Assembly (NCBI GenBank): GCA_963978545.1 | Contig: OZ021724.1 | Span: 29,749,933 to 29,813,932, forward strand | DNA: 64,000 nt | Reading direction: 5' to 3' | Source of the DNA: Linyphia triangularis | Taxonomy: Eukaryota; Arthropoda; Arachnida; Araneae; Linyphiidae | Shown: positions 1 through 46,355 of the stretch, one piece after another | Position numbering within the stretch: position 1 is the first letter of the stretch | Layout: each line of letters begins with the position of its first letter | Translations under genes and position numbers: made by a program | The notes under the pieces: model-generated | The model's database searches: none | What the model was told of the DNA's origin: nothing | Seen by the model: only the letters and a program-made list of their open reading frames with translations

Positions 1-1641
1 ATGCGTTTATTTTCAATATAAACCGTAAATTGTAGGTTCACGGTCAAAAATATGAACTCTATTAACACGTAAAATATTTTAAATAGTTAGCTTGCATTAA
101 AGAATAAATAAAAAAAAATTTCAACCGGAAGTCGTTACAATTTCAACCAGAAGTCGTTACAATTTCGACCGGAAGTCTATCCCTAATCGACTCCAACAGC
201 TTGGAATACATACATAAAACACATTCTATATATAAAAGGGTTGATTTTGATAACGTACCAAATGGAATATTCTACTCGGATATTACTTCCGGTTGAGGTT
301 TTAGACTTTTTTTTTTAGAGTTTGGCTTAAAAATGGGCCTTTTTTAAACTCCCCCTTCATATAAAGGGTCACTCTTAAAAACTAGTATACTTCTTTCATG
401 TTCTATACATCAAATTGTAAGAATGAATATGCTAAATTTAAAATGAAAAATATCAACCGGAAGTGACTAAAATTCTGGAAATCAACGCATAAGCAAATTT
501 CAGAGCTTACACCGATTTTTTGTCTTATAGTAGAGCGGCAAGAAGGAAAAAAACTGCATTTCGTGAAACAAGTCTGTAATTTTGGAACATCGATAGAATA
601 TATCATTCTAATCATTTTACGAAGTGGAGCCACTCGGTTTCACTTTCGGTCGAGTTTTTATACTAGTTCAAAGTTAGGCATAAAATATTCATTTTTATCA
701 ATAAAAATAGTTATACGTGGGGTCATAACCAAAATCATGAACTTTATAGACATGTGTAATATGTTAAATATAGATAAAAGGTTAAAAAAAAAAATAGTAA
801 AAAATGTTCGACCAGAAGTGATATGCATTTTGACCGGAAGTCTATCTTTAACAGCTAAAACTGCATCTAATAGCTTATACTACATGTATGAAACATACGC
901 TATCAAAAAAAGGGAATTCTGGTGATGTTTCATGATAAACTAAATTTAAAAAGTTACTTCCTGTCGAGGTTTTAAATTATTTTTTTTTAAATAAGATTTA
1001 AAAATGTGTTTCTCTATATTTTAACATCTTCTTATACATCTATTTATAAGGATAGATATGCTGAACATGAAATGGAAAACTCCAACTGGAAATTACTGAA
1101 ATTCCGACCGGAAGTCTACTTATAATTCATTGATACTGCCCTTATACCAATACCTTTATGTATCACGGTGATATCGTCTCAGATAGCCGGAAGATTTCAT
1201 TTGATATTTCAGAAAAGGAATGATGATTATGCTAAGTATAAAATGGTAAATTTCAACCGAAATGACTGGAATTCTGACAGGAAGTTCGCTTGTACGATTT
1301 TCTTTTTATTTTTTTCAATACATTTAAGATATAACCAAAATATAAATCTCACTAGTTGCAATCCTCTCAAATATGGACTAAGACAGGAGATTATTTTTAA
1401 AGGAATTCACATCGCACTCTCCTTCTTTTTTTTTTGGGGGGGGGGGGGATGATGGAGACACGGAAGTTGAACATTTTATTTTTTTCATTGATTATATTTT
1501 CAGATATTTAATTGTATTTTAGACTCAGATTAGGCTATCTGAGACGATATTACTGTGATACTTATATGTATTGGTATATGGGCAGTATCAGTTCCTTATA
1601 AGCAGACACTCACTTCAGATTGAAAATTTTCATTTTACATC
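1..1641. repeat. Left outer array of ETS-motif (ACCGGAAGT) repeats
   Basis: AT-rich DNA in which the motif ACCGGAAGT or its complement recurs, exactly at 124-132, 168-176, 285-293, 456-464, 833-841 and 1107-1115, with one-base variants (for example CCAGAAGT) between. Longer blocks also repeat: the stretch near 1-60 resembles that near 680-760. The same sequence family flanks the palindrome on the right (16.65-17.59 and 19.14-19.31 kb), so this is the border repeat of the palindromic element. ACCGGAAGT is the textbook ETS/GABP binding consensus; binding here is inference. No convincing gene is visible. A G-run lies at about 1,434-1,449. Confidence 0.75.
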
Positions 1642-1704
1642 CAGAAGTAGTTAGAAATTGGGCATCCTGAGCCATGGAGGGATGAGGGATGGGATGAGGG
1701 ATGA

Positions 1705-1796
1705 TGACGTCACCGGAAGGGGGCGTGACCGGATATGACGGCACAGGAAGTGACATCACCGGATATGACGTCACCGGAAGTCACGTGACCGGAAGT
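1705..1796. promoter_or_regulatory. ETS/CRE/E-box cluster, left arm
   Basis: Within 92 bp there are TGACGTCA at 1,705-1,712 and 1,766-1,773, ACCGGAAG at 1,712, ACCGGAAGT at 1,773-1,781 and 1,788-1,796, a CACGTG E-box at 1,782-1,787, and several CCGGATATGACG half sites. Sites abut or share a base. The segment is much more GC-rich than its surroundings. The motifs match ETS, CREB/ATF and USF/MYC-type consensus sites, suggesting a dense enhancer or promoter for the downstream AlkB-like gene; occupancy is inferred. Confidence 0.65.
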
Positions 1797-1857
1797 GTAG
1801 TTGAGTTGTTCCCCTCTTGCTGTTGTTTTAGTTTCGGTTTCGTTATAAGCTGTTTGT

Positions 1858-2360
1858 GTATGACGTCACAGTGGGAATGACGTCATAATGTGTTTTATAT
1901 CAAAGTTTTGAGTGGTGGCAACACTTTTTTAGTTTCGGTTTATCTAGCAGACGGAGTTGAGTTGTTCTAGGACTGCTTCTTAGTGAATAAGTTAGAGTGA
2001 TAGGTTTTTATTGCATGACGTCACAGTGGGTATGACGTCATAATTTGTTTTATATCAAAGTTTTTGAGCGGTGGCAACATTTTTTAGTTTTTTTTTGCTT
2101 CCAGTTAAATGGGGTTGAGTTGTTCTAGGGCTGCTTCTAAGTGAATAAGTTAGAGTTATAGATATTTTTACTAGTGACGTCACAGTGAGTATGACGTCAT
2201 AACTTGCTTAACGTTAAAAGTTTTGAGCAGTGGCAACACTTTTTAGTTTCGATTTACCTTTCAGGTGGAGTTGAGTTGTTTTAGAGCTGCTTCTAAACGA
2301 ATAACTTAGAGTTATAGATATTTTTACTAGTGACGTCACAGTGGGTATGACGTCATTCAA
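1858..2360. repeat. Four tandem ~157-bp repeats with paired CRE sites, left arm
   Basis: Units begin with TGACGTCA at 1,861, 2,016, 2,175 and 2,331 (spacing 155-159 bp). In each, a second TGACGTCA follows 17 bp later, separated by CAGTGGGTA or a close variant. Between pairs come a conserved GGCAACA(C/T)TTTTTAGTTT block and a GTTGAGTTGTT block. Full palindromic CRE sites in this periodic layout look like a regulatory array upstream of the AlkB-like gene. The copies are diverged enough to be old. Confidence 0.85.
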
Positions 2361-2427
2361 TGTTAAGATTGAGAATTTAAGATATGGCAACATCTTGTGA
2401 GAGATCTAGATACGAGCAGGTGTTAAT

Positions 2428-2670
2428 CGGATGAGTCATTCTGTTTGAACAGCTTGGAACAGGATATTGCACGGCGATAAAGGTGGATAGGTGTTAACCA
2501 ATCAGATTTCACCCTAGAGGGCGTTGTTTCGACTGCCAGCCAATCAGAAGGGATGAGCTGCGTCACTCACGGACTTGTATTCAGCGAGGACACCATTTCT
2601 CTCCTGATTTTGTCAAGTGAAGGTGCGTTTGCTGTTTCTTCGAAGTTGTGCTTGTTAGTTTGAAGTGAAA
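2428..2670 (+). promoter_or_regulatory. CCAAT/AP-1 promoter of the AlkB-like gene, left arm
   Basis: Contains an AP-1-like TGAGTCA (2,432-2,438) and two CCAATCAG boxes (CCAAT at 2,498-2,502 and 2,540-2,544), followed by GC-richer DNA up to the candidate ATG at 2,671. A 35-bp block here (GGATGAGTCA, then TTGGAACAGG) recurs at 5,838-5,870 in front of the 57-codon frame, so the element carries two related promoter modules. No clear TATA box. Mirrored at about 15,625-15,867. Confidence 0.5.
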
Positions 2671-3557
2671 ATGTCGTCTGATTTACATATTGAACTCGTT
2701 GAAAGTTTTTACGATGCAGCTAAATCACAGCAGTTTTTGCATGAATTGTTGAACTACGAGTATGAGAATCTCCAATTGAACTTTAATGGAAAAAGTTACA
2801 CGCCTCAAAGGAAGTGCTCGGTTTTGGTGATACTGGCGTGAAATATGCCTTTTCTGGAACGTGCGTCTTTTCCAAACCGTGGACTTCTACACTGCTTGAT
2901 ATTAAGAAGGAGGTTGAAAACAAGACTGGACAAGAATACAACTATGCCCTTCTCAACTACTATGCAGATGGAAATGCCAAGATTGGAGCTCATAAAGACA
3001 GCGAAAAAGACTTGGATCCAGACTTCACTATTCCAACCCTAAGTCTCGGAGCTATCAGAACCATGCAGTTTGCCCGTCCGGATTTCCAGCCCAACAAAGT
3101 TCCGTTGCCAAGTGGATCTCTCCTTCTCATGAAGCCACCCACCAATCAGTTCTGGACCCATGAAATTTCAACCGAACCTGCTGTGACGGAGCCGAGAATC
3201 AGTATCACTTTCCGGAACATCGTAGCGAGACCGCAAGATATTGTAGAGTATCCCCACAAGTCCCTTTCTCGGAAGAGACCATCAGATGAAGTGATCGTCG
3301 AAGAAGAAACAATTCCCGATGACGACTGGATGACTCGCCTTTATGCCTCTGTAAAGAAAACCAGTGAATGCCTCAAGGAATGGAACCTTGGATTTGGTTT
3401 CATAGTGTCTCTTCATCAATATGACTCTCGTCTTTTCATCCACATGTCTCAACATAAGAGTCAAGGAAGTACTCAGAAAATTATGATGAACATGGATACC
3501 TTTCAGGACTTTTATAACAAACTCTTACACGTGAACACGAAATACGCAGCTAAGTAG
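2671..3557 (+). CDS. AlkB-type 2OG-Fe(II) dioxygenase with PC4-like tail, left arm (frame break)
   Basis: AlkB proteins oxidatively remove alkyl groups from nucleic-acid bases using 2-oxoglutarate and Fe(II); this one looks closest to ALKBH2. A frame from the ATG at 2,671 runs to a stop near 2,840, while the main domain is in the -1 frame, open from 2,787 to the TAG at 3,555-3,557. Homology seems to continue across the junction near 2,808-2,814, so one base appears missing there. Counting from 2,814 (247 codons): NYY (N48, Y50), H60-x-D62 and H116 for iron, and R128-x5-R134 for 2OG are all present. Residues 151-155 (LSRKR) could be a nuclear signal. Residues ~172-240 resemble a PC4/p15 ssDNA-binding domain (weaker call). 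No introns. GC content is well above flanking DNA. Whether it is active depends on how the frame break is resolved. Confidence 0.75.
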
Positions 3558-4083
3558 CGTTGTGTGTAACAATCAACTCCTGGTTCTATCACATAAGGGT
3601 GAGTTAGTTTTAAAACAACTCTTTTATTTTAAACTTAAGGAAAGTTCCTTAAAAGTAAATGAAAATAATCTTGCTAAAATTAGAGATCTCATGCATGAAA
3701 TATGTGAAACCATCAAGGAGTCTCTTATAAATTTACTGCGAGTTGAAATTCTTAATCATTGTGTTCAAAATGTAAATATACCACCCAATATAGACTTATT
3801 TCATGAATATGTTTGTGCTTTTCGATGTGAGTTAGAAAGTAATGTTTTAAAATTGTTTCGCTGTGATGCTTGTGCTATTGGTGACCCCTCGCAAGAAAAT
3901 CATGTCTGTATAACTACTTCATTGCAAGATCAGTCTTGGTGTGTTGGAGACGATGCTATACTTGTACTTAATGTTAAAAATGTGATTGAAACCTTACAAT
4001 GTAAAAATGTCATACAATTCTTTAATGAAGATTTCTTTAAATGTATATCATATGGTGCTTTGAAAGATTATTTGAAATTGTAA
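3535..4083 (+). CDS. Unknown 173-codon frame downstream of the AlkB-like gene, left arm
   Basis: An open frame directly after the AlkB-like gene, overlapping its last codons in another frame. It is open from 3,535 and ends with TAA at 4,081-4,083. It has no early ATG: the residues before about codon 43 are reached only from non-ATG codons (a GTG at 3,562), so it may be a downstream exon, a shifted extension of the AlkB-like frame, or start late. The protein is Leu/Asn/Cys rich with a Cys-containing segment (FRCDACAIGDPSQENHVC) that could bind metal, and helical ends. It is unchanged in the other arm. I do not recognise the family. Confidence 0.55.
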   Translation, partial: TRNTQLSSVVCNNQLLVLSHKGELVLKQLFYFKLKESSLKVNENNLAKIRDLMHEICETIKESLINLLRVEILNHCVQNVNIPPNIDLFHEYVCAFRCELESNVLKLFRCDACAIGDPSQENHVCITTSLQDQSWCVGDDAILVLNVKNVIETLQCKNVIQFFNEDFFKCISYGALKDYLKL

Positions 4084-4289
4084 AAAAAAATTATTCAATG
4101 GAAATTTGTGTGTGATTTTCTTATGTGAAATAATAGAACAAAAAATGTTAAAGCAATATCACTTTATTGAATCATAAATTTTCCCACTTTTTAGGTGGTT
4201 TTACATTTCGTCTCAACTTTGTTTGAACAATTTTTCTGATTTTTGGATACTCTAATGCATAAATAAGAGAGAAAAAGTAACATACTTGA
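4084..4289. other. Short AT-rich spacer after the 173-codon frame, left arm
   Basis: Contains AATAAA on the minus strand (within TTCAATAAAGTGATATTG, about 4,155-4,172) but no clean AATAAA on the plus strand, so a poly(A) site here would serve a transcript arriving from the tandem repeats. No frame of note. Confidence 0.3.
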
Positions 4290-5755
4290 ACATCTTACAA
4301 CTAAGAATTCAAAAGTGAACGTGAAAATTTACTTTACGAATAAACATCATGTCTTTAAAATGTGTAAGAATATCACTAAATAAGAGAAAAAAGTAACATA
4401 CTTAAACTTTGTACGACAAATAACTTTGACATTAACGTAAAATTTGTTCTTCACATATAAAAATCACAACTTTAAAATGTGACGTGTAAGAAGAATTAGC
4501 ATACTTAAAATTTCTACGAGAAATAATTTTAACCTTTACGCGAAAATTTACTATATACATAAAAATCATGTCTTTAAAATATGTAAAATATTGCTAAATA
4601 AAGAAAAAAGTAACATACTTAAACTTTGTACGACAAATAACTTGAACATTAAAGTAAAAATTTACTTCACATATAAAAATCACGACATTAAAATGTGACA
4701 TGTAAGAAGAATTAGCATACTTAAAATTTCTACGATAAATAATTTTAACATTTGCGTGAAAATTTACTACATATATAAAAATCATGTCTTTAAAATATCG
4801 CTAAATAAAAGAAAAAAGTAACATAATAAACTTTCTACGACAAATAACTTTAACATTAACGCAAAAATTTACTTTACACATAAAAATCACGACTTTAAAT
4901 TTGACGTGTAGGAGGAAAGTATAACATACCTATAATTTTTACGACAAAGAATTCAAACATTGCCATTCATGTATTTAAAATGTATAATGACAACTCTAAT
5001 TTTTAGAAAAAAGAAACACTAAAAATTTACAAAGCAAAGAATTTAAAATTGAACGTGAAAATTAACTTTACATGTACAATCATACTCTTATATCAACGAT
5101 AAATAAGATAAAAAAGAAGCTCTAAAAATTTATAAGGTAAATAATTTAAATAATACGCGAAAATTTACCACACATATAAAAATTATGTCTTTCAAATGTG
5201 TAAGAATAACGCTAAATTAGAGAAAAAGAAATACTAAAAATTTATAAGGTAAGGAATTGAAACAATATGCGAAAATTTATTTCACGCAAAAAATTTTTAT
5301 CTTTAAAATGTGTAAGAATAATGCTAAATTAGAGAAGAAAAAAAATAACATACTTAAACTTTCTTCGACAACAATTTAAACAATTCGCGACATTTTCATA
5401 CACAATTATTTTCTTAGGTTAATGTTAAATAATGGGAAATTTAACAGAATAAAAACTTCAAAGATAAAGAATTTTAACCTTTACACGAAAATTTACCTCA
5501 CAAAAATATCATATCCTTAAACTTTAACGTGACAATTTACTCTTCATATACAATTAAACTCTTGGGTTAATGTTAAATAAGAAAAAAAAATAATATACTT
5601 AAAATTTCTAAGATAAACATAACGTAAAAATTTCGTATCATGTGTTTAAAATGTAACATATAAGAGAAAAAAACTAACATACTTGAACTTTCTATAGCAA
5701 AGAATTTAAGCATTAGCGTAAAAATTCACTTTACATATAAAATTCACATCTTTAA
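4290..5755. repeat. AT-rich ~110-bp tandem repeats, left arm
   Basis: About 13 diverged copies of a unit containing the blocks AACATACTTAAA(C/A)TTT, ACGACAAATAA, CGTGAAAATTTAC and CATATAAAAATCA, followed by TTTAAAATGTG. Some neighbouring copies agree better in pairs, suggesting a dimeric ~220-bp unit at the outer end. Short frames inside are by-products of the repeat. It separates the two promoter-plus-frame modules of the arm. Confidence 0.8.
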
Positions 5756-5759
5756 ATGG

Positions 5760-5840
5760 GAAGATAAGCAGGTGACGGTAATTAGCCAATCAGGGTAGCA
5801 GTAGGTAATACGCCATTCGCCGGCATTTTTAGATCGGAGG
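5760..5840 (+). promoter_or_regulatory. CCAAT promoter of the 57-codon frame, left arm
   Basis: GC-richer island in AT-rich DNA, with GCCAATCAGGG (CCAAT 5,786-5,790) and GCCGGC. It leads into GGATGAGTCA, where the AP-1-like TGAGTCA overlaps the ATG of the 57-codon frame. It resembles the promoter module at 2,428-2,544. Mirrored at 12,455-12,535. Confidence 0.4.
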
Positions 5841-6014
5841 ATGAGTCACGCTAAAACTTGTTGGAACAGGTCGGGAGATTTGTACAGCAAGAACAACAGC
5901 ATCGACGCGCAAGCAGTGGGTGATGCTGTGATGTGTCAGCAGGTCTTTGAGATTATCGTTTTCCTACTTTGCCGTTTTCATAATGAAATGTTAGTGAAAA
6001 CTTGGAATGAATGA
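5841..6014 (+). CDS. Small 57-codon frame, left arm
   Basis: ATG at 5,841 in fair context (GGAGG before it), TGA at 6,012-6,014. The predicted peptide begins MSHAKTCWNRSGDLY and ends CRFHNEMLVKTWNE; it is mildly basic with a short hydrophobic stretch (FEIIVFLLC) about residues 38-46. It sits just after a CCAAT-containing promoter-like island, and the open frame survives in the other arm despite three residue differences. It could be a short protein, a first coding exon, or chance. No family recognised. Confidence 0.35.
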   Translation: MSHAKTCWNRSGDLYSKNNSIDAQAVGDAVMCQQVFEIIVFLLCRFHNEMLVKTWNE

Positions 6015-9000
6015 AGTGGATTTCAAAGACACATTAGTAAGTGAAGGTAGAATTCGCATGGACTTTCTTCCAAAAAGTATGATTCACTTGGAGAATTTAC
6101 GATCATTTCTACTTGAAAACTTTTCTATTATTTAAAACATTGAATATTGTTCAAACTCAGTGGGATTATATGCTACAATACGGGTAAAACTTAACAAAAT
6201 TGTTACATAGAAGAAAAATAGTAAGAGATTTAAAATAAATATTAGTTATAGATACTCCAAAGAAAAAAATTCACCTCTACTTTTCAATCGGAAAATCAGT
6301 ACAAGTTGGAAATTTATGTTACTTCAAGAAAGACTTAGACAATTTACTTTGTAATAATATACGTTAAGGTGTCATATTAACTCGTGCAATAAATGCTGAC
6401 TAAGGATTATTTTACTTATCAATCTAAGAAAGGTGAATTGGGGGAAAATATTAAATAAATTGTAGATATTAAATACATTGTAGATATGCATTCAAGTTTT
6501 GAAAATCGCCTGCAAGACTTTTAAAACATCTTAAGATAATTTGAAAGAAACTTGCGAATTATATGTAAACTACATAACTTTTTATACTCTGAAAGGAAAT
6601 CACAAGTAACTTAGTTAACTTTTTTCATGGTAACACTCATATTCAATGACATGTTTTTAAAATTTAACCTTCTTTACATGATATTAGTTATAAATTTGTT
6701 CAATCTCAGATGCGATATACTATTATTTCCAACGTATATGTTAGGAATTGTGTAAAGTTTTTAAAAGAGTATATGCAAATCACCAATCAGAAACATAAAA
6801 ATCTAACATCATTCAAACAAACTAAAATAATAAGATATTTTCCTTAGTGGAAATAGTTAACTACTCATGCGATGGAATATACTTAGAAAACTTAAATACT
6901 GAAAAAAGTTTGCTAGGCAAACTTAAAGAATATTTTTTTTTTCTTGTGAAAAACTAGCATAAATTTGAAAAATGTAGAGTTTGTTACTACGTAAAATTGA
7001 ACATCATCTGGACAAACTAAATTATACGTGAAATTTTTTATTTTTTTATTTGAGAGGTGCTGACAATATATCATTAATATAAAGATTTTTAACTTCCACC
7101 CATAATTTCTAAATAACTTATACATAAATACATAAATTTCAGAAAACTGAAACGGAATGTGTTTTACAAGAGGCTTATTTTGTAAGATGAATATTCAATA
7201 TTAATATAACTGAGCAAAGTTCATTCCGGAAAAAACTTGTGAAAGATACTTATATTTTGAAAATAGTTTGAAATATCCTTTTAAATTTATGAATGCTCGC
7301 TTTCGAAAGACACAAATAAAACTGATATTACTCATGATAATTAACACATGCATAACATTAGTCAAACAAAGTGAAATTTTTATTGCTTGTGACCGATAAC
7401 TTTTCAGTGAAGCAGAACTTACATAGGAAATGTGTGCAAACTTTTTCAACTTTTTCAACTTTTAAACCAAGTATCATGTAAAATTATAAATTACGATAGG
7501 AAATAGCCTACTTCAGAATCGGAACAAGTCTTGTAGTTAAGCTAAATTTATTTCTCAAGGAATTGAAAGCATACCAGAGAAGTCCTTATCATTTCGCATC
7601 TTTTCTCATGTTGCAAGAAGACATACTTTGTAAAAGATCGTCGTAGCACTTAACAAAAATCAGTAAAAATAAATATATTTTCTATGGCAAAGATAAAACT
7701 TCACAACTTAATTACTGAAATTTAGCTAAGTTGCATATGGTTTATTCACATAACTCGCATATGCTTCGAATGTTGAAATATATTTGTCAGTTGAAATCAA
7801 ACTCATCGAAAATAAATGCTATCTACATTTTCAAGTCGGAAATTACTATTAAATAAACTTTACATGTAAGACATTATCATGTTAAAATTAAAAATCTACA
7901 AAAATGTAAATGATAATTTTACTGTTGGTACATAAATGATGAATAATTTATGATTTTATTCTAGGCAAACGTTTTATTGTCTAACAGAAAACTTAAACTT
8001 TAGCAGAAAAACGAAAAAATACAATTTTTATATCCTATCATGCTTGTCGAAAATTGAATTTATTAGCTGTTGTAATAGATTTTTATTGTCCAAATTTCTA
8101 TAGTTTTTCTTCCCAGTGCAATAAAATTAAGTTCATGTGTAATGAGTAGGTTTTTTTTTTATGAATCTTTTAAATTTAATGAAATTATTATTACCTAAGA
8201 GATTGAGTGAACTGAATAAATCAATGATGTAAATTTAAACAGTGACTTGAACTGATACATACTATAACTGTAAAGAAGTATGACAAAGTGGTAGATGAAG
8301 TGAAAATAGAAGTTGAGTGAAATGTGTTGAAAAAAGTTGAAGACGACAAGAAATTCATAAATGAGAATTATCATTGACTTAAATTAACTTCGTTTTTCTT
8401 GCTTATGACAAGAAAATACACTCTTTCTTATTAAGAACCAACTTGATATCTTATCATAGAATGACAATATTGAAATATCTATACATTAAAAAAAAATACC
8501 AAACTTAGACATAGCAAATTTCTTGAAATTCATGTATAATGTGAGAAGTTTTACTGGAAATATAGAAGATACAACATTGAAAGATGTGAATGTTTCGAAG
8601 TACTTTATCAGAAATAAAAAAAATAAAAAAAATGCGCCGAGGTCCGCTATAAAATTTTTTAGGAGAAAGTTTAAACAAAATTTAAAATCAAACATGCTTT
8701 TAAGTGGGAACACATATATTAAAACTATAGCACATTTAACAATTTATATTATGTCATCTCAGTTGGTATCAAACTGAATAACATGAAAAACAACCACAAA
8801 CTGAATAAACATGAAAATTATCACTATATGTGGAAAAGTTTCCTTTTTTCACATATAAAAAAAATAACACATTGACATACGTTAAGATCACGAAACATGC
8901 GTAATCATATACCGATAAGAGCAACCAATGTTGCGGGGAGATATTCACGTGATGGTCAATATCCCATGAATAAATTGATTGATTGAATTTCTAATGCTAA

Positions 9001-9133
9001 TTCCAATAGTATTCCACGTAACTTTAACTTTACACTATAGATCTATTTATTTTTCAAATATATTGACTTTCGAAAAATCATCCTTCAATATAAGAATGAA
9101 CATAGTAAGAATAAAAGAAAAGATACTAAGCAT
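6015..9133. other. AT-rich inner arm, left
   Basis: About 3.1 kb of very AT-rich DNA running to the palindrome centre. The only frames are short (up to ~85 codons), in both strands, Lys/Phe/Asn rich and typical of chance in such composition; they are matched in the other arm only because the DNA is duplicated. No repeats or promoter signals stand out. Confidence 0.5.
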
Positions 9134-9156
9134 TGATTTAAAGTGTATTTATTTCG
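9134..9156. other. Palindrome loop (centre of symmetry)
   Basis: A 23-nt AT-rich spacer between the two arms. Immediately outside it the arms pair base for base (ACTAAGCAT at 9,125-9,133 against ATGCTTAGT at 9,157-9,165). With so short a loop the 7.5-kb arms could extrude a cruciform, or fold on themselves when single-stranded. Confidence 0.9.
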
Positions 9157-12100
9157 ATGCTTAGTATCTTTTCTTTTATTCTTACTATGTTCATTCTTAT
9201 ATTGAAGGATGATTTTTCGAAAGTCAATATATTTGAAAAATAAATAGATCTATAGTGTAAAGTTAAAGTTACGTGGAATACTATTGGAATTAGCATTAGA
9301 AATTCAATTAATCAATTTATTCATGGGATATTGACCATCACGTGAATATCTCCCCGCAACATTGGTTGCTCTTATCGGTATATGATTACGCATGTTTCGT
9401 GATCTTAACGTATGTCAATGTGTTATTTTTTTTATATGTGAAAAAAGGAAACTTTTCCACATATAGTGATAATTTTCATGTTTATTCAGTTTGTGGTTGT
9501 TTTTCATGTTATTCAGTTTGATACCAACTGAGATGACATAATATAAATTGTTAAATGTGCTATAGTTTTAATATATGTGTTCCCACTTAAAAGCATGTTT
9601 GATTTTAAATTTTGTTTAAACTTTCTCCTAAAAAATTTTATAGCGGACCTCGGTGCATTTTTTTATTTTTTTTATTTCTGATAAAGTACTTCGAAACATT
9701 CACATCTTTCAATGTTGTGTATCTTCTATATTTCCAGTAAAACTTCTCACATTATACATGAATTTCAAGAAATTTGCTATGTCTAAGTTTGGTATTTTTT
9801 TTTAATGTATAGATATTTCATCATTGTCATTCTATGAAAAGATATCAAGTTGGTTCTTAATAAGAAAGAGTGTATTTTCTTGTCATAAGCAAGAAAAACG
9901 AAGTTAATATAAGTCAATGATAATTCTCATTTATGAATTTCTTGTCGTCTTCAACTTTTTTCAACACATTTCACTCAACTTCTATTTTCACTTCATCTAT
10001 CACTTTGTCATACTTCTTTACAGTTATAGTATGTATCAGTTCAAGTCACTGTTTAAATTTACATCATTGATTTATTCAGTTCACTCAATCTCTTAGGTCA
10101 TAATAATTTCATTAAATTTAAAAGATTCATAAAAAAAAAAAACCTACTCATTACCCATGAACTTAATTTTATTGCACTGGGAAGAAAAACTATAGAAATT
10201 TGGACAATAAAAATCTATTAGAACAGCTAATAAATTCAATTTTCGACAAGCATGATAGAGGATATAAAAATTGTATTTTTTCGTTTTTCTGCTAAAGTTT
10301 AAGTTTTCTGTTAGACAATAAAACGTTTGCCTAGAATAAAATCATAAATTATTCATCATTTATGTACCAACATTAAAATTATCATTTACATTTTTGTAGA
10401 TTTTTAATTTTAACATGATAATGTCTTACATGTAAAGTTTATTTAATAGTAATTTCCGACTTGAAAATGTAGATAGCATTTATTTTCGATGAGTTTGATT
10501 TCAACTGACAAATATATTTCAACATTCGAAGCATATGCGAGTTATGTGAATAAACCATATGCAACTTAGCTAAATTTCAGTAATTAAGTTGTGAAGTTTT
10601 ATCTTTGCCATAGAAAATATATTTATTTTTACTGATTTTTGTTAAGTGCTACGACGATCTTTTACAAAGTATGTCTTCTTGCAACATGAGAAAAGATGCG
10701 AAATGATAAGGACTTCTCTGGTATGCTTTCAATTCCTTGAGAAATAAATTTAGCTTAACTACAAGACTTGTTCCGATTCTGAAGTAGGCTATTTCCTATC
10801 GTAATTTTTAATTTTACATAATACTTGGTTTAAAAGTTGAAAAAGTTGAAAAAGTTTGCACAAATTTCCTATGTAAGTTCTGCTTCACTGAAAAGTTATC
10901 GGTCACAAGCAATAAAAATTTCACTTTGTTTGACTAATGTTATGCATGTGTTAATTATCATGAGTAATATCAGTTTTATTTGTGTCTTTCGAAAGCGAGC
11001 ATTCATAAATTTAAAAGGATATTTCAAACTATTTTCAAAATATAAGTATCTTTCACAAGTTTTTTCCGGAATGAACTTTGCTCAGTTATATTAATATTGA
11101 ATATTCATCTTACAAAATAAGCCTCTTGTAAAACACATTCCGTTTCAGTTTTCTGAAATTTATGTATTTATGTATAAGTTATTTAGAAATTATGGGTGGA
11201 AGTTAAAAATCTTTATATTAATGATATATTGTAAGCACCTCTCAAATAAAAAAATAAAAAATTTCACGTATAATTTAGTTTGTCCAGATGATGTTCAATT
11301 TTACGTAGTAACAAACTCTACATTTTTCAAATTTATGCTAGTTTTTCACAAGAAAAAAAAAATATTCTTTAAGTTTGCCTAGCAAACTTTTTTCAGTATT
11401 TAAGTTTTCTAAGTATATTCCATCGCATGAGTAGTTAACTATTTCCACTAAGGAAAATATCTTATTATTTTAGTTTGTTTGAATGATGTTAGATTTTTAT
11501 GTTTCTGATTGGTGATTTGCATATACTCTTTTAAAAACTTTACACAATTCCTAACATATACGTTGGAAATAATAGTATATCGCATCTGAGATTGAACAAA
11601 TTTATAACTAATATCATGTAAAGAAGGTTAAATTTTAAAAACATGTCATTGAATATGAGTGTTACCATGAAAAAAGTTAACTAAGTTACTTGTGATTTCC
11701 TTTCAGAGTATAAAAAGTTATGTAGTTTACATATAATTCGCAAGTTTCTTTCAAATTATCTTAAGATGTTTTAAAAGTCTTGCAGGCGATTTTCAAAACT
11801 TGAATGCATATCTACAATGTATTTAATATCTACAATTTATTTAATATTTTCCCCCAATTCACCTTTCTTAGATTGATAAGTAAAATAATCCTTAGTCAGC
11901 ATTTATTGCACGAGTTAATATGACACCTTAACGTATATTATTACAAAGTAAATTGTCTAAGTCTTTCTTGAAGTAACATAAATTTCCAACTTGTACTGAT
12001 TTTCCGATTGAAAAGTAGAGGTGAATTTTTTTCTTTGGAGTATCTATAACTAATATTTATTTTAAATCTCTTACTATTTTTCTTCTATGTAACAATTTTG

Positions 12101-12280
12101 TTAAGTTTTACCCGTATTGTAGCATATAATCCCACTGAGTTTGAACAATATTCAATGTTTTAAATAATAGAAAAGTTTTCAAGTAGAAATGATCGTAAAT
12201 TCTCCAAGTGAATCATACTTTTTGGAAGAAAGTCCATGCGAATTCTACCTTCACTTACTAATGTGTCTTTGAAATCCACT
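9157..12280. other. AT-rich inner arm, right
   Basis: Inverted copy of 6,015-9,133 with scattered substitutions (for example GCGCCGAGG versus GCACCGAGG near 8,635/9,655). No gene supported. Confidence 0.5.
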
Positions 12281-12454
12281 TCATTCATTCCAAGTTTTCA
12301 CTAACATTTCATTATGAAAACGGCAAAGTAGGAAAACGATAATCTCAAAGACCTGCTGACACATCACAGCATCACCCGCTGCTTGCGAGTAGATGCTGTT
12401 GTTCTTGCTGTATAAATCTCCCGACCTGTTCCAACAAGTTTTAGCGTGACTCAT
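12281..12454 (-). CDS. Small 57-codon frame, right arm
   Basis: Counterpart of the left frame. It keeps start, stop and length but has three residue changes in one stretch (IYSQAAG here, IDAQAVG on the left). Upstream the frame is open a further 12 codons, to 12,490, without an ATG. Substitutions without a stop are weak support for coding. Confidence 0.35.
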   Translation of the reverse strand: MSHAKTCWNRSGDLYSKNNSIYSQAAGDAVMCQQVFEIIVFLLCRFHNEMLVKTWNE

Positions 12455-12539
12455 CCTCCGATCTAAAAATGCCGGCGAATGGCGTATCACCTACCGCTAC
12501 CCTGATTGGCTAATTACCGTCACCTGCTTATCTTCCCAT

Positions 12540-14005
12540 TTAAAGATGTGAATTTTATATGTAAAGTGAATTTTTACGCTAATGCTTAAATTCTTTGCTA
12601 TAGAAAGTTCAAGTATGTTAGTTTTTTTCTCTTATATGTTACATTTTAAACACATGATACGAAATTTTTACGTTATGTTTATCTTAGAAATTTTAAGTAT
12701 ATTATTTTTTTTTCTTATTTAACATTAACCCAAGAGTTTAATTGTATATGAAGAGTAAATTGTCACGTTAAAGTTTAAGGATATGATATTTTTGTGAGGT
12801 AAATTTTCGTGTAAAGGTTAAAATTCTTTATCTTTGAAATTTTTATTCTGTTAAATTTCCCATTATTTAACATTAACCTAAGAAAATAATTGTGTATGAA
12901 AATGTCGCGAATTGTTTAAATTGTTGTCGAAGAAAGTTTAAGTATGTTATTTTTTTTCTTCTCTAATTTAGCATTATTCTTTTACATTTTAAAGATAAAA
13001 ATTTTATGCGTGAAATAAATTTTCGCATATTGTTTCAATTCCTTACCTTATAAATTTTTAGTATTTCTTTTTCTCTAATTTAGCGTTATTCTTACACATT
13101 TGAAAGACATAATTTTTATATGTGTGGTAAATTTTCGCGTATTATTTAAATTATTTGCCTTATAAATTTTTAGAGCTTCTTTCTTATCTTATTTATCGTT
13201 GATATAAGAGTATGATTGTACATGTAAAGTTAATTTTCACGTTCAATTTTAAATTCTTTGCTTTGTAAATTTTTAGTGTTTCTTTTTTCTAAAAATTAGA
13301 GTTGTCATTATACATTTTAAAGACATAAATGGCAATGTTTGAATTCTTTGTCGTAAAAATTATAGGTATGTTATACTTTCCTCCTACACGTCAAATTTAA
13401 AGTCGTGATTTTTATGTGTAAAGTAAATTTTTGCGTTAATGTTAAAGTTATTTGTCGTAGAAAGTTTAATATGTTACTTTTTTCTTTTATTTAGCGATAT
13501 TTTAAAGACATGATTTTTATATATGTAGTAAATTTTCACGCAAATGTTAAAATTATTTATCGTAGAAATTTTAAGTATGCTAATTCTTCTTACATGTCAC
13601 ATTTTAATGTCGTGATTTTTATATGTGAAGTAAATTTTTACTTTAATGTTCAAGTTATTTGTCGTACAAAGTTTAAGTATGTTACTTTTTTCTTTATTTA
13701 GCAATATTTTACATATTTTAAAGACATGATTTTTATGTATATAGTAAATTTTCGCGTAAAGGTTAAAATTATTTCTCGTAGAAATTTTAAGTATGCTAAT
13801 TCTTCTTACACGTCACATTTTAAAGTTGTGATTTTTATATGTGAAGAACAAATTTTACGTTAATGTCAAAGTTATTTGTCGTACAAAGTTTAAGTATGTT
13901 ACTTTTTTCTCTTATTTAGTGATATTCTTACACATTTTAAAGACATGATGTTTATTCGTAAAGTAAATTTTCACGTTCACTTTTGAATTCTTAGTTGTAA
14001 GATGT
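12540..14005. repeat. AT-rich ~110-bp tandem repeats, right arm
   Basis: Inverted copy of the array at 4,290-5,755, with the same copy order and a few substitutions, so the array was present before the arm was duplicated or has been homogenised since. Confidence 0.8.
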
Positions 14006-14211
14006 TCAAGTATGTTACTTTTTCTCTCTTATTTATGCATTAGAGTATCCAAAAATCAGAAAAATTGTTCAAACAAAGTTGAGACGAAATGTAAAACCAC
14101 CTAAAAAGTGGGAAAATTTATGATTCAATAAAGTGATATTGCTTTAACATTTTTTGTTCTATTATTTCACATAAGAAAATCACACACAAATTTCCATTGA
14201 ATAATTTTTTT

Positions 14212-14760
14212 TTACAATTTCAAATAATCTTTCAAAGCACCATATGATATACATTTAAAGAAATCTTCATTAAAGAATTGTATGACATTTTTACATTGTA
14301 AGGTTTCAATCACATTTTTAACATTAAGTACAAGTATAGCATCGTCTCCAACACACCAAGACTGATCTTGCAATGAAGTAGTTATACAGACATGATTTTC
14401 TTGCGAGGGGTCACCAATAGCACAAGCATCACAGCGAAACAATTTTAAAACATTACTTTCTAACTCACATCGAAAAGCACAAACATATTCATGAAATAAG
14501 TCTATATTGGGTGGTATATTTACATTTTGAACACAATGATTAAGAATTTCAACTCGCAGTAAATTTATAAGAGACTCCTTGATGGTTTCACATATTTCAT
14601 GCATGAGATCTCTAATTTTAGCAAGATTATTTTCATTTACTTTTAAGGAACTTTCCTTAAGTTTAAAATAAAAGAGTTGTTTTAAAACTAACTCACCCTT
14701 ATGTGATAGAACCAGGAGTTGATTGTTACACACAACGCTACTTAGCTGCGTATTTCGTGT
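14212..14760 (-). CDS. Unknown 173-codon frame, right arm
   Basis: Mirror of 3,535-4,083, with an identical predicted protein and the same absence of an early ATG. It lies directly downstream of, and in a different frame from, the right AlkB-like gene. Function unknown. Confidence 0.55.
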   Translation of the reverse strand, partial: TRNTQLSSVVCNNQLLVLSHKGELVLKQLFYFKLKESSLKVNENNLAKIRDLMHEICETIKESLINLLRVEILNHCVQNVNIPPNIDLFHEYVCAFRCELESNVLKLFRCDACAIGDPSQENHVCITTSLQDQSWCVGDDAILVLNVKNVIETLQCKNVIQFFNEDFFKCISYGALKDYLKL

Positions 14761-15624
14761 TCACGTGTAAGAGTTTGTTATAAAAGTCCTGAAAGGTATC
14801 CATGTTCATCATAATTTTCTGAGTACTTCCTTGACTCTTATGTTGAGACATGTGGATGAAAAGACGAGAGTCATATTGATGAAGAGACACTATGAAACCA
14901 AATCCAAGGTTCCATTCCTTGAGGCATTCACTGGTTTTCTTTACAGAGGCATAAAGACGAGTCATCCAGTCGTCATCGGGAATTGTTTCTTCTTCGACGA
15001 TCACTTCATCTGATGGTCTCTTCCGAGAAAGGGACTTGTGGGGATACTCTACAATATCTTGCGGTCTCGCTACGATGTTCCGGAAAGTGATACTGATTCT
15101 CGGCTCCGTCACAGCAGGTTCGGTTGAAATTTCATGGGTCCAGAACTGATTGGTGGGTGGCTTCATGAGAAGGAGAGATCCACTTGGCAACGGAACTTTG
15201 TTGGGCTGGAAATCCGGACGGGCAAACTGCATGGTTCTGATAGCTCCGAGACTTAGGGTTGGAATAGTGAAGTCTGGATCCAAGTCTTTTTCGCTGTCTT
15301 TATGAGCTCCAATCTTGGCATTTCCATCTGCATAGTAGTTGAGAAGGGCATAGTTGTATTCTTGTCCAGTCTTGTTTTCAACCTCCTTCTTAATATCAAG
15401 CAGTGTAGAAGTCCACGGTTTGGAAAAGACGCACGTTCCAGAAAAGGCATATTTCACGCCAGTATCACCAAAACCGAGCACTTCCTTTGAGGCGTGTAAC
15501 TTTTTCCATTAAAGTTCAATTGGAGATTCTCATACTCGTAGTTCAACAATTCATGCAAAAACTGCTGTGATTTAGCTGCATCGTAAAAACTTTCAACGAG
15601 TTCAATATGTAAATCAGACGACAT
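14738..15624 (-). CDS. AlkB-type 2OG-Fe(II) dioxygenase with PC4-like tail, right arm (same frame break)
   Basis: Inverted copy of the left gene. The main frame (15,481 down to the stop at 14,738) encodes the same 247 residues, including the HxD...H iron triad and the RxxxxxR 2-oxoglutarate motif; a silent CGC/CGT difference was seen. The ATG-proximal frame (ATG at 15,622-15,624) is offset by one base from the main frame at the same place as on the left. Finding the same break twice means it predates the duplication, was copied by gene conversion, is functional, or reflects one consensus error used for both arms. Confidence 0.75.
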
Positions 15625-15939
15625 TTTCACTTCAAACTAACAAGCACAACTTCGAAGAAACAGCAAACGCACCTTCACTTGACAAAATCAGGAGAGAAAT
15701 GGTGTCCTCGCTGAATACAAGTCCGTGAGTGACGCAGCTCATCCCTTCTGATTGGCTGGCAGTCGAAACAACGCCCTCTAGCGTGAAATCTGATTGGTTA
15801 ACACCTATCCACCTTTATCGCCGTGCAATATCCTGTTCCAAGCTGTTCAAACAGAATGACTCATCCGATTAACACCTGCTCGTATCTAGATCTCTCACAA
15901 GATGTTGCCATACCTTAAATTCTCAATCTTAACATTGAA

Positions 15940-16434
15940 TGACGTCATACCCACTGTGACGTCACTAGTAAAAATATCTATAACTCTAAGTTATTCGTTT
16001 AGAAGCAGCTCTAAAACAACTCAACTCCACCTGAAAGGTAAATCGAAACTAAAAAGTGTTGCCACTGCTCAAAACTTTTAACGTTAAGCAAGTTATGACG
16101 TCATACTCACTGTGACGTCACTAGTAAAAATATCTATAACTCTAACTTATTCACTTAGAAGCAGCCCTAGAACAACTCAACCCCATTTAACTGGAAGCAA
16201 AAAAAAACTAAAAAATGTTGCCACCGCTCAAAAACTTTGATATAAAACAAATTATGACGTCATACCCACTGTGACGTCATGCAATAAAAACCTATCACTC
16301 TAACTTATTCACTAAGAAGCAGTCCTAGAACAACTCAACTCCGTCTGCTAGATAAACCGAAACTAAAAAAGTGTTGCCACCACTCAAAACTTTGATATAA
16401 AACACATTATGACGTCATTCCCACTGTGACGTCA
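15940..16434. repeat. Four tandem ~157-bp repeats with paired CRE sites, right arm
   Basis: Inverted counterpart of the left array. CRE pairs lie at 15,940/15,957, 16,096/16,113, about 16,255/16,272 and 16,410/16,427. All eight TGACGTCA cores are intact, in contrast with the eroded ETS cluster just outside. Confidence 0.85.
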
Positions 16435-16498
16435 TACACAAACAGCTTATAACGAAACCGAAACTAAAACAACAGCAAGAGGGGAACAACTCAACTAC

Positions 16499-16590
16499 AC
16501 TTCCGTTCACGTGACTTCCGCTGACGTCATATCCGGTGATGTCACTTCATGTGCCGGCATATCCGGTCACGCCCCCTTCCGGTGACGTCC
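16499..16590. promoter_or_regulatory. ETS/CRE/E-box cluster, right arm (diverged)
   Basis: Mirror of the left cluster. The outer TGACGTCA/CACGTG framework survives, but the two exact ETS sites have changed to ACTTCCGTT and ACTTCCGCT and the innermost CRE to TGACGTCC. The GGAA core is kept. This is among the most diverged parts of the arms. Confidence 0.6.
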
Positions 16591-16641
16591 TCATCCCTCA
16601 TCCCTCCATGGCTCAGGATGCCCAATATCTAACTACTTCCA

Positions 16642-17589
16642 GTAATCCATCCTTATAATTTGATGTAACAACATGTAATTTTAACAGTTTTTAATTGCGA
16701 CCATTTATAGTTTATTTGAAGGGGGTATAATTTCAAAGAGTGTATTTTTAAGTCTAACTTTAAAGAAGTCTAAAACTTCGACCAGAAGTCGCTTTTTAAT
16801 TTTAGTTTATCATAAAACATCACTAAAATTCTCTTTTTAATGATAACATATGTTTCTTATATGAAGTTTGAGCTGTTGGATGCAGTTTAAGTATTTATAA
16901 ATAGACTTCCGGTCGAATGCAAATCACTTCCGGTTGAATTTTTTACTACTTTTTTCAATCTTTCATCTATACCTAGAAATTTAACATATTACACATGTCT
17001 ATAAAACTCATGATTTGGCTGTAACCCCACATATATTTATTTTTATTGAAAAAAAAACGAAATTTTATGCCCAACTTTGAACTTGCATAAAAACTCGACC
17101 GGAAGTGGATTTTGAGTGTCTCCACTTCTTAAAATGATCAGAATGGCATATTCTATCAGTGGTGCAAAATTTCAGATTTGTTTTACGAAGTGCAGTTTTC
17201 GGCTATTTTTTGGCGTCATGCCGCTCTACTAATACGTATATAGATATTTTACAAACTTCCGGTCGTAACTTGCTTTCTTATTTTGGTATATATTTAATAT
17301 ATTATAATATTTTTATTTGATAAGTTTTATAATATATTAAATTAACTCTTTTATAAATGGAATATATTTTATGTATATAGTTAAAGTTGTTGGAGTTGAA
17401 TAGGGATACACTTCCGGTCGAAATATTAATAGCTTCCGGTTGAAATTTTTTTTTTATTCTCTAATAAAAGCCTAACTATTTAACATATTATGCGTGTTAA
17501 TAAAGTTTATATTTTTGGCCGCGAACCTATAATTTACGCTTTTTAATGAAAAGAACCGCATATTTTATGCCTAACTTTGAAGTAGTATA
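16642..17589. repeat. Right outer array of ETS-motif repeats, proximal part
   Basis: Same sequence family as 1-1,641 but not in register with it. Exact ACCGGAAGT or its complement occurs at 16,905-16,913, 16,926-16,934, 17,098-17,106, 17,255-17,263 and 17,410-17,418. A long unit ending in TTTTACGAAGTGCAGTTTTC and GCCGCTCTACTAATA (17,190-17,235) is repeated after the Tc1 element at 19,225-19,285. A small AT hairpin lies at about 17,290-17,342. Confidence 0.75.
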
Positions 17590-19140
17590 CACTACGGGAA
17601 AAAAATAGAAGGACAGTCATATTTTGTAATTTATGCTTTGTATTTTGATCCTCCTGATCTAAATTTCTTTTTTATGTAGTTTGGCTATTTTTTCTTTTTT
17701 ATAAATGAGTAAATTTTATCTACCACTAGTAAAAATTAAGGAAAACAGTACTTAACGATTTTTGGTGAGTGAAAAAAGTAGAAGGACACGTGCTAAAATA
17801 ATTTGTTTTGGAATATTGTAAACCTCAAAGGTAGGTGTTTCATTCTTTTTAACTGTTTTTGTTAAGAAAAACATACTATTTTATTGAAAACCCGTCGTTT
17901 TCATCTTTTTAGAATGCCTAGAGGAAAACCTTTAAGTGAGTTTGAAAAAGGCCAAATTTATGCCTACAAAAACGATGGCAAAGGTGTGAGAGAGATTGCA
18001 CGCCAGCTACATATTAGTCCAAATACTGTTTCAAACTAAATAAGAAATCCTAGTTGTCAGGGAACCAAAAAGAAGACTGGCAGACCTAAAAAACTGACGC
18101 AACGCGATCAAAGAAAAATCATTCGGGAACTAAAAAAACCGGATGGAAGTATTGCCAAAGCTCAAAATAATGCAGGCATCACACACGTTTCAAGAAGAAA
18201 TGTCTACAACTATATAAAAAGGTCCGAAAATTTAGTATTCCGAAAAAGGAAGCACCATCCCAAATGGAATGAAAGGCACATTGAACACTCTGGACTAAAA
18301 ACCACATGTCCTGGACGTCAGAATGGACCTCCGTTATATTTTCTGACGAGAAAAGATCTAATTTAGACGGTCCAGATGGCTACAAATACTATTGGCACTG
18401 TCTCGGTAGTGAAGAAAAGACTTATTCTACCTGACAGATGGGAGGAGGGAGTTTAATGATTTGGTTGGCAGTCGGGTACGGAAGAACAAGCCTAGTGTTC
18501 CTGAGTGGCAGGCAGAAACACACAGATTACATCCAAGTCTTGAATTCAGATCTCCTTCCCTACGGCGTTGAGCTAGGCGGAAATGACTAGATTTTTCAAC
18601 AGGACGGAGCATCAATTCACACAGCTAATGGGGTTAAAAATTGGTTTGCAGCAAATAATGTTCGGGTTTTGCCATGGCCTGCTAAAAGCTCGGACCTCAA
18701 CATTGTAGGGAACATATGGGCAATGAATGTTCGTAGCGTTTACGCGGAAGGCAAGCAGTTTGAATCATTAGTTGAGCTTCGGAGAACTTTGAATTATGTA
18801 TGGGACAATTCCTGCCAAACAGAAATTCAAACTTTATATTATTCGATGCCAAATCGAATTTTTGAAGTAATCAAAGCCAATGGTGGAAGAATTCCCTATG
18901 AATGAGACTTTTATTTGCATTATTTAGAAGTGTCCTTCTACTTTTTTCACAGAGTATGATGAAGTGAAAACTGATTTATTGCTGTACTTGACCTGTATTT
19001 TTTTGTTTCAATTTTCAGATACAGTTATCTGTTTGTAATTAGTAATTTAAAGTGTTACTCATTAAATTGTTATGGAAAAAAATCAGTGTTTTTTATTTAT
19101 AAAAAAAAATCATGTGTCTTTCTACTTTTTTCACGCAGTG
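17590..19140 (+). mobile_element. Tc1-like DNA transposon inserted in the ETS array
   Basis: Ends are inverted repeats (CACTACGGGAAAAAAATAGA on the left; reverse complement of the right end CACTGCGTGAAAAAAGTAGA) flanked by TA dinucleotides at 17,588-17,589 and 19,141-19,142, as expected for Tc1/mariner insertion. About 1.55 kb, the usual size. It interrupts one unit of the ETS-motif array, so it is younger than the array. Confidence 0.9.
17914..18905 (+). pseudogene. Tc1-like transposase, inactivated
   Basis: Begins at ATG 17,914 with MPRGKPLSEFEKGQIYAY and a helix-turn-helix (GVREIARQLHISPNTVSN), then TAA in frame at 18,037-18,039, a second HTH-like part, and a DDE catalytic domain read in shifted frames. 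The first Asp (FSDEK, about 18,335-18,350) and second (QQDGASIH, about 18,600-18,620) are visible. The third position, usually Glu in N-P-I-E-N-L-W, reads NIVGNIW near 18,700-18,720, so the catalytic Glu is Gly. Ends GGRIPYE, TGA at 18,903-18,905. Clearly dead. Confidence 0.9.
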
Positions 19141-19310
19141 TAAAACCTCGACCGGAAGTGAAATCCGAGTGGCCCCACTTCTTAAAATGATTAGAATGTC
19201 ATTATCTATCGATGTGCAAAATTATAGACTTGTTTCACGAAGTGCAGTTTTCGGCTATTTTTTGGCGCCTAGCCGCTCTACTAATAGGGTAAGGAAAGTA
19301 TAGCATTCGG
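19141..19310. repeat. Right outer ETS-motif array, distal remnant
   Basis: Resumes the unit cut by the Tc1 element: ACCGGAAGT at 19,151-19,159, then CACTTCTTAAAATGAT, CACGAAGTGCAGTTTTCGGC and GCCGCTCTACTAATAGGG, all matching 17,098-17,235. The array stops where the LINE poly(A) begins. Confidence 0.75.
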
Positions 19311-46205: not shown

Positions 46206-46355
46206 GTCTTGTGCGCAAAGAAGAATGGGCACTGAAACCCAAAAAGGAATGTTACACGTTTGAACCAAAATCAAAAAGTTTTTTTCTAGAATACTTCAAC
46301 AACAACAAAACAAAACAAAATAGAAAGTAAATTAACACCCCAAACGGTTATAAAT

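What the first reader, a model, noticed from the sequence alone, without database searches (positions are those of the whole stretch)
1642..16641. Bounded 15-kb palindrome carrying duplicated AlkB-PC4-like genes and regulatory arrays
Two 7.5-kb arms are nearly identical inverted copies around a 23-nt loop and stop sharply at both ends, where they meet out-of-register copies of the same ETS-motif repeat. Each arm has two promoter-like modules, two tandem arrays and three frames, but no transposase, integrase or polymerase that I can see. The organisation does not match a transposon class I know. Options are a hairpin-dimer of a linear replicon or virus, a passenger carried by other elements, or an ampliconic palindrome kept alike by gene conversion. 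Arm differences argue against a plain fold-back assembly error.
Basis: partly seen in the sequence, partly recalled or inferred. Interest (0 to 1): 0.9.

Follow-up and report, generated by a model that had tools for sequence, protein, structure and literature searches.

The report
Palindromic snap-back Polinton transposon family
The 15-kb mirror-image stretch is one copy of a numerous jumping element, apparently made when one half of a virus-like Polinton transposon folded back and copied itself, and its two halves seem to be made alike again each time it spreads.

Summary
The palindrome is real and is a mobile element. Arms 1646-9133 and 9157-16637 differ at 39 of about 7,480 aligned sites. 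A degenerate 29-base pattern of the element's end matches 343 + 324 times in the genome. Among the 100 places listed, 39 adjacent +/- pairs all carry the same one of 8 end variants on both sides; 22 places are unpaired. Twenty of 20 pairs sampled have an exact 6-bp target duplication and 5'-AGTAGT ends.

Nine of 12 centres examined close in a 61-62-nt imperfect hairpin; the window copy lacks about 1.1 kb of centre. Nine of 10 other copies encode one open 470-aa AlkB-containing protein per arm; in the window it is broken. Partner arms are nearest neighbours in 10 of 10 copies, with no difference shared between copies.

The parent looks like a Polinton/Maverick. Eight of 19 unpaired AlkB relatives lie 12-18 kb from a PolB match, on a constant relative strand. 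One PolB element is itself an 11-kb palindrome, at every place sampled, with AGTAGT ends and a 6-bp duplication.

Best reading: snap-back Polintons mobilised in trans. Protein priming and integrase use are inferred.

The parts
1646..16637 (.). whole palindromic element (this copy)
   Evidence: similarity to the borders of 10 other inverted pairs starts at 1645/1646 in 16 of 20 borders by BLAST; AGTAGTTAG is readable at the border in 20 of 20
1646..9133 (+). left arm; outer end 5'-AGTAGTTAGAAATTGGGC
9157..16637 (-). right arm, inverted copy of the left arm
9134..9156 (.). 23-nt loop, read as the scar of a centre deletion; nine other copies have ~540 bp more per arm and a 61-62-nt imperfect hairpin tip
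1640..1645 (+). left target-site duplication, TCCAGA
   Evidence: 5 of 6 bases match the right one
16639..16644 (+). right target-site duplication, TCCAGT (decayed; one extra base next to the end)
1705..1797 (+). subterminal 15-bp TGACGTCACCGGAAG array (mirror near 16498-16590)
1861..2356 (+). 156-bp x3 array with paired TGACGTCA sites (mirror 15939-16434); no substitution between arms
2357..2670 (+). promoter-like module (CCAAT and AP-1-type sites; motif names recalled, function not tested)
   Evidence: motif scan
2671..3557 (+). 5' part of the 470-aa gene: AlkB (ALKBH2-like) domain plus middle domain; frame broken after codon 48 in both arms (mirror 14738-15624)
3562..4083 (+). 3' part of the same gene, in another frame here: orphan C-terminal domain (C..C..DPSQ..H.C) (mirror 14212-14733)
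4319..4961 (+). AT-rich 216-bp array; window 4505-5081 is missing from the arms of the ten other pairs but present in a nested eleventh copy inside L025
5095..5344 (+). AT-rich 112-bp array
5760..5990 (+). second promoter-like module; no frame of 70 aa or more starts directly behind it

Best explanation
A copy of a multi-copy snap-back Polinton. An AlkB-bearing Polinton/Maverick (linear, virus-like DNA transposon) gave rise to molecules in which the AlkB-end half of the genome was copied back on itself, so the same terminus lies at both ends and the whole is a palindrome closed by a short imperfect hairpin tip. Shown: the palindrome, its numerous ends, the 6-bp duplications, the open gene in other copies, AlkB genes at a constant distance and strand from PolB, and a PolB-bearing palindrome of the same design. 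Inferred: PolB starts at the AG ends by protein priming and displaces a single strand; that strand folds on itself, mismatches between the arms are erased, and re-copying gives a new element with identical arms; a Polinton integrase supplied in trans inserts it with a 6-bp duplication. The element keeps the AlkB protein, but no polymerase or integrase gene was found in it, so it would live as a satellite of full Polintons. The window copy is an older one: gene broken, centre deleted, duplication decayed, arms the most diverged of the ten compared.
For: Mobile: 343 forward + 324 reverse matches of the end pattern, 0 + 0 for the reversed control; exact 6-bp duplication in 20 of 20 pairs sampled and in 7 of 10 fetched earlier, read by eye. 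Same end twice: 39 adjacent +/- pairs within 40 kb among 100 listed places, 39 of 39 with matching end variant (chance 0.15 each). Arms equalised per copy: within-copy difference 0-0.38%, between copies 0.14-2.02% (median 0.65%), partner arm nearest in 10 of 10, 21 differing sites with 0 shared and 0 with both states elsewhere. Hairpin tip 61-62 nt in 9 of 12 centres examined. Polinton link: PF03175 (DNA_pol_B_2) 60 matches, 91 scored of 809 candidates; 8 of 19 unpaired AlkB places 12.3-17.6 kb from a PolB, six at 12.27-12.37 kb, same relative strand, against 0.09 of 40 expected; PolB element C3:60358020-60369070 palindromic at all four places sampled, AGTAGT ends, TSD AGCATC, TGACGTCA near the end.
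Against: No integrase or polymerase was found in the arms, and none of the 40 listed close AlkB copies lies within 543 kb of the 60 listed PolB places. Beyond AGTAGT and TGACGTCA the ends of the AlkB palindrome and the PolB palindrome are not alike. The ends of an AlkB-bearing full Polinton were not read; the search for them did not complete. Eleven of the 19 unpaired AlkB relatives have no listed PolB within 25 kb (both lists are capped). Identical arms could also come from gene conversion after insertion. The fetched copies are those most like the window or first in the listing, not a random sample, and about 1.5 kb of each of their arms was not read.
Confidence: 0.83

Rival explanations
1. 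A foldback-type DNA transposon (FB, Galileo, Tetris kind): cut-and-paste element with very long terminal inverted repeats holding tandem arrays, mobilised by a DDE transposase, arms kept alike by ordinary gene conversion.
For: Long, internally repetitive inverted repeats and almost no middle are the foldback hallmark; Tetris has long TIRs with ~220-bp tandem repeats and no conserved ORF in its complete copies (PMC4079207, passages).
Against: Tetris makes 8-10 bp duplications, here exactly 6 in 20 of 20. Relatives of the arm's gene sit at constant distance from PolB and a PolB element shows the same palindromic design and AGTAGT ends. The arms carry a whole gene and reach 7.5 kb.
Confidence: 0.1
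2. The palindrome is a Polinton derivative, but arm identity is due to gene conversion within the inserted copy, not to hairpin-templated copying at each transposition.
For: Window arm differences are clustered: variance test p 0.001; 3 of 39 substitutions in 1801-4825 (a stretch picked after seeing the data), against 6 in the outer 157 bp. Arms of a human Y palindrome convert (PMC3723533, abstract in listing).
Against: Closely related copies (i and j, 4-5 differences in 2.9 kb) have 0 and 1 within-copy differences, and no within-copy variant is shared by two copies, so equalisation is at least as fast as spread. Both processes may act.
Confidence: 0.35
3. Assembly artefact: one arm read twice or a fold-back chimera.
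For: Copy a (L009/L010) has inverted flanks 99.5% alike over 1.9 kb and no target duplication, as a chimera or a local fold-back would.
Against: Matching 6-bp duplications next to otherwise different flanks in 20 of 20 pairs; arm-specific differences in the window; similar span at 27 of 39 listed pairs. No reads were available here.
Confidence: 0.03
4. A local ampliconic palindrome of host genes kept by selection.
For: Two inverted gene copies, 99.5% alike.
Against: 343 + 324 end matches genome-wide, sharp ends with target duplications, gene broken in the window copy.
Confidence: 0.02

Closest known systems
Polinton/Maverick self-synthesising DNA transposons (15-20 kb, pPolB, RVE integrase; PMC4028283, passages)
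   Same: Size class, 6-bp duplication and 5'-AG ends (both recalled as Polinton traits), AlkB gene related to AlkB genes that lie near PolB in this genome, first six end bases shared with PolB elements
   Different: Palindrome of one half; no PolB or integrase gene found in the arms (capsid not searched as such); hundreds of ends in the genome
Snapback genomes of adeno-associated virus (PMC8235507, abstract and passages)
   Same: Half-genome self-complementary molecules with one end twice, able to replicate when the enzymes come in trans
   Different: Those are defective genomes of a parvovirus found in virions; here the form is inserted, numerous and in most copies read still keeps an open gene
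Symmetric recombinant adenovirus genomes (recalled, not looked up)
   Same: Protein-primed linear DNA with one end duplicated on both sides of a palindrome
   Different: Virus passage product, not an integrated family
Foldback transposons such as Galileo and Tetris (PMC3573991, listing only; PMC4079207, passages)
   Same: Very long inverted repeats containing tandem arrays
   Different: Other duplication length (Tetris), P-type transposase (Galileo, abstract in listing), no whole gene in the arms of Tetris
AlkB-carrying Ty3/Gypsy elements of orchids (PMC9289625, abstract)
   Same: A mobile element that took up an AlkB-family demethylase
   Different: LTR retrotransposon, plant RNA-demethylase type

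Membership tests
Polinton/Maverick | 6-bp target-site duplication | tested here: met
   20 of 20 exact; 7 of 10 exact in the earlier set. That this is typical of Polintons is recalled
Polinton/Maverick | termini 5'-AG...CT-3' with inverted repeats | tested here: met
   AGTAG...CTACT; a PolB element of this genome also begins AGTAGT. That AG ends are typical is recalled
Polinton/Maverick | protein-primed DNA polymerase B encoded in the element | tested here: not met
   no PolB hit: Pfam on six window ORFs, on P0001/P0121, and on six frames of window 5990-9133. The other non-coding stretches and the extra ~540 bp per arm of full copies were not scanned, but hold no long frame in the window or are too short for a PolB
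Polinton/Maverick | RVE-type integrase encoded in the element | tested here: not met
   same scans, same limits
Polinton/Maverick | gene content shared with PolB-bearing elements | tested here: met
   8 of 19 unpaired AlkB relatives 12.3-17.6 kb from PolB, constant relative strand; the stretches between were not read
Polinton/Maverick | capsid proteins | not tested
   not searched in this genome
Foldback transposons (Galileo/Tetris/FB) | long internally repetitive inverted repeats | tested here: met
Foldback transposons (Galileo/Tetris/FB) | duplication of the length reported for Tetris (8-10 bp) | tested here: not met
   exactly 6 bp in 20 of 20
Gene-conversion palindromes (Y type) | single-locus ampliconic palindrome | tested here: not met
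   343 + 324 end matches genome-wide
Gene-conversion palindromes (Y type) | arm-to-arm conversion | tested here: inconclusive
   clustered differences fit it but do not prove it
Snapback viral genomes | self-complementary molecule with one terminus at both ends | tested here: met
   39 of 39 adjacent pairs with matching ends; centre hairpin in 9 of 12 centres
Snapback viral genomes | exists as free replicating molecule with help in trans | not testable with these tools
   needs DNA from the animal

The most novel reading that the evidence does not exclude
A new lifestyle for virus-like transposons: half-genome hairpin molecules of a Polinton became a self-maintaining satellite lineage (roughly 330 copies if the 667 ends pair up; a second AlkB subfamily also occurs as convergent pairs) that keeps one open AlkB-containing gene, moves with borrowed polymerase and integrase, and re-makes both arms from one strand at every move, so that arm divergence is a clock for each insertion, as LTR divergence is for retrotransposons.
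Probability: 0.6. Interest if true: 0.87.

Novelty: new variant of a known kind. Interest (0 to 1): 0.8.

Why it matters
Polintons are seen as both transposons and viruses, but how their linear DNA replicates in animals is largely inferred (recalled). Palindromes that are equalised at each move would be a footprint of single-strand, fold-back replication left in a genome, readable by sequence alone. It would also show defective-genome (satellite) biology of a virus-like element expanded in a host germ line, and would explain long palindromes that otherwise look like assembly errors or gene-conversion amplicons. Four literature searches touching Polintons, AlkB or palindromes showed no title or abstract start on palindromic Polintons among the rows listed (15, 15, 12 and 10 rows of longer or partial lists), which is weak evidence of absence.

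Tried and rejected
Viral-contig scans with the AlkB frame, the orphan-domain alignment, the AlkB alignment and a CRE-repeat pattern gave no relative; a prokaryote genome scan gave none. Protein searches gave one near full-length relative, P0001 with P0121 on one 1,784-bp contig of unknown organism, plus ordinary AlkBs (690 at E 1e-3, 120 listed), where the best named animal ones are from the spider Araneus ventricosus. Rfam (gathering threshold) and tRNA scans were empty. A six-frame Pfam scan of 5990-9133 gave two hits, both below cut-off. I first took the ETS flanks for part of a larger palindrome; the other copies speak against it. I considered the two tip orientations as flip/flop evidence and dropped it: a symmetric element inserts either way round. 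PC4 was not confirmed; the structure job was accepted late and was unfinished when last asked. Twelve interior pieces of four long-span end pairs showed arm pieces, nested copies, gag-like frames (by look) and a second AlkB subfamily; their frames were not scanned against Pfam.
Full report
Observation. The window carries a palindrome: 1644-16639 aligns with its own reverse complement at 99.17% over 15,016 columns. Arm against arm there are 39 substitutions and 20 gap columns in 7,497. The differences are clustered (variance test p = 0.001; longest identical run 1,488 bp, p = 0.006), with 3 of 39 in 1801-4825 and 6 in the outermost 157 bp (the stretch 1801-4825 was chosen after looking).

It is one copy of a numerous element. 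A search of the window's own genome (1.349 Gb, 369 contigs) with 2400-3900 gave 523 first-look candidates; the 40 scored were 96-100% alike, many in inverted pairs about 12 kb apart, as in the window. I fetched both borders of ten pairs. By BLAST the similarity to the window starts at 1645/1646 in 16 of 20 borders (the others start at 1629, 1699, 1719 and 1719), and no hit of 150 bp or more falls in the ETS flank; AGTAGTTAG can be read at the border in 20 of 20. A degenerate 29-base end pattern occurs 343 times forward and 324 times reversed, its control 0 and 0. Of the 100 places listed (C1 and part of C2), 39 adjacent +/- pairs lie within 40 kb and 22 places stay unpaired; 27 of 39 pairs span 14-17 kb, and 39 of 39 have the same end variant on both sides although eight variants occur. 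For 20 of the pairs spanning 14-17 kb I fetched 70 bases per end: 20 of 20 have an exact 6-bp target duplication. In the first ten pairs, read by eye, 7 are exact, one has an extra base, one is unreadable in a TA repeat, and one (copy a) has none and instead has flanks that mirror each other for 1.9 kb. In the window the duplication is TCCAGA/TCCAGT, 5 of 6.

Anatomy of other copies. I fetched the expected centres of the ten pairs and two more. In nine of the 12 the arms run on about 540 bp beyond the window's inner arm end and close in a 61-62-nt imperfect hairpin; of the other three, one has a different centre deletion, one has a TA repeat at the centre, and one stretch missed the centre. 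So the window's 23-nt loop reads as a deletion scar. The part of these arms between about window position 7,400 and the centre piece was not read. In 9 of 10 other elements both arms hold one open 470-aa frame: AlkB (ALKBH2-like), a middle domain, and an orphan C-terminal domain. In the tenth it stops at residue 422. In the window both arms share the same breaks. Among nine intact copies, one arm each, I count 14 non-synonymous and 9 synonymous variants, pN/pS 0.40, p = 0.037: mild evidence for selection on the protein. For the relative P0001, ALKBH2 is the nearest solved structure by sequence (E 1e-27). PC4 did not show in Pfam or PHROGs.

Arms are equalised copy by copy. Over about 2.9 kb per arm in ten copies including the window (copy d left out because one arm lacks a segment), arms of one copy differ at 0-11 sites (0-0.38%; the window is highest), copies differ by 0.14-2.02% (median 0.65%, 200 comparisons, copy d's one arm included). 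The partner arm is the nearest neighbour in 10 of 10. Of 21 within-copy differences, none recurs in another copy and none has both states elsewhere. Old differences are therefore not carried from copy to copy. Either each new copy gets both arms from one strand, or conversion outruns spread.

The parent looks like a Polinton. PF03175 (DNA_pol_B_2, the family of protein-primed PolB as I recall) is common here: 60 matches, 91 scored of 809 candidates; it rang in 0 of 14 control genomes. PolB matches face each other at C3:60.36 Mb. The stretch between them is a palindrome (98.3%); arms are identical at the 3- and 5-kb probes and unrelated at 7 kb, and alike again over the last 450 bp (99.8%). The element is 60358020-60369070, 11,051 bp, with 5'-AGTAGTATATACCCC ends, duplication AGCATC and TGACGTCA near the end. 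Its end occurs 10 times in the genome (up to one mismatch), including a 15.3-kb span on C12 with a PolB match inside. The window's family shares AGTAGT and subterminal TGACGTCA with it, but little else of the end. A second AlkB subfamily met in a long-span locus was used as a query: of 40 scored (470 candidates), 21 at 99-100% make ten convergent pairs and one single; 19 at 86-91% are unpaired under a 13-kb rule (two of them face each other at 29 kb), and 8 of these 19 lie 12.3-17.6 kb from a PolB place, six at 12.27-12.37 kb, always on the same relative strand; 0.09 of 40 would be expected. These look like full Polintons with AlkB towards one end and PolB towards the other; the stretches between were not read, and 11 of 19 have no listed PolB within 25 kb. 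None of the 40 listed close relatives of the window gene lies within 543 kb of a listed PolB, as expected if that family is all satellites. All these lists are capped.

Mechanism. Shown: the form, the numbers, the ends, the duplications, the gene, the PolB link, the equalised arms. Inferred: strand displacement from protein-primed ends gives single strands; a palindromic strand folds into a 7.5-kb hairpin; repair erases mismatches; re-copying restores a 15-kb duplex with two good ends; a Polinton integrase inserts it. The first palindrome would arise when a displaced strand of an AlkB-bearing Polinton folded back at the tip and copied its own end. AAV snapback genomes are a known parallel (PMC8235507, abstract and passages).

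Limits. Copies fetched were the most similar or the first listed. No reads were available. The ends of AlkB+PolB Polintons were not read.

Noticed in passing
1-1639 and 16645-19290: The element sits between ETS-motif (CCGGAAGT) tandem units of about 0.5-0.7 kb that face each other in inverted orientation, about 80% alike, as if it had jumped into the middle of an older inverted repeat. Whether palindromes are preferred targets is open.
   Followed up: partly
17592-19140: Decayed Tc1/mariner-like element inserted in the right ETS array, ends at TA (class from the sequence's look and recall).
   Followed up: partly
L009/L010 (C14:61987900-62013800): Copy a has no target duplication; its two flanks are inverted copies of each other for 1.9 kb at 99.5%: a chromosomal fold-back or an assembly chimera.
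   Followed up: partly
44811-47951: Another inverted repeat: 1.4-kb arms, 86% alike, 345-bp spacer.
   Followed up: no
36234-36472: Short element that is nearly its own reverse complement (87.5%), related to 28929-29157.
   Followed up: no
P0002 (protein search): An ALKBH2-like protein of the spider Araneus ventricosus stands for 82 member sequences: AlkB may be amplified by mobile elements there too.
   Followed up: no
L098 (C6:58962500-58965550): A second close inverted pair of PolB pieces, 429 bp at 99.8%, plus a 770-bp self-inverted stretch: possibly another PolB palindrome.
   Followed up: no
4505-5081: The window copy carries about 576 bp of AT-rich array per arm that the arms of the ten other pairs lack, while a nested eleventh copy inside L025 has it.
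   Followed up: no
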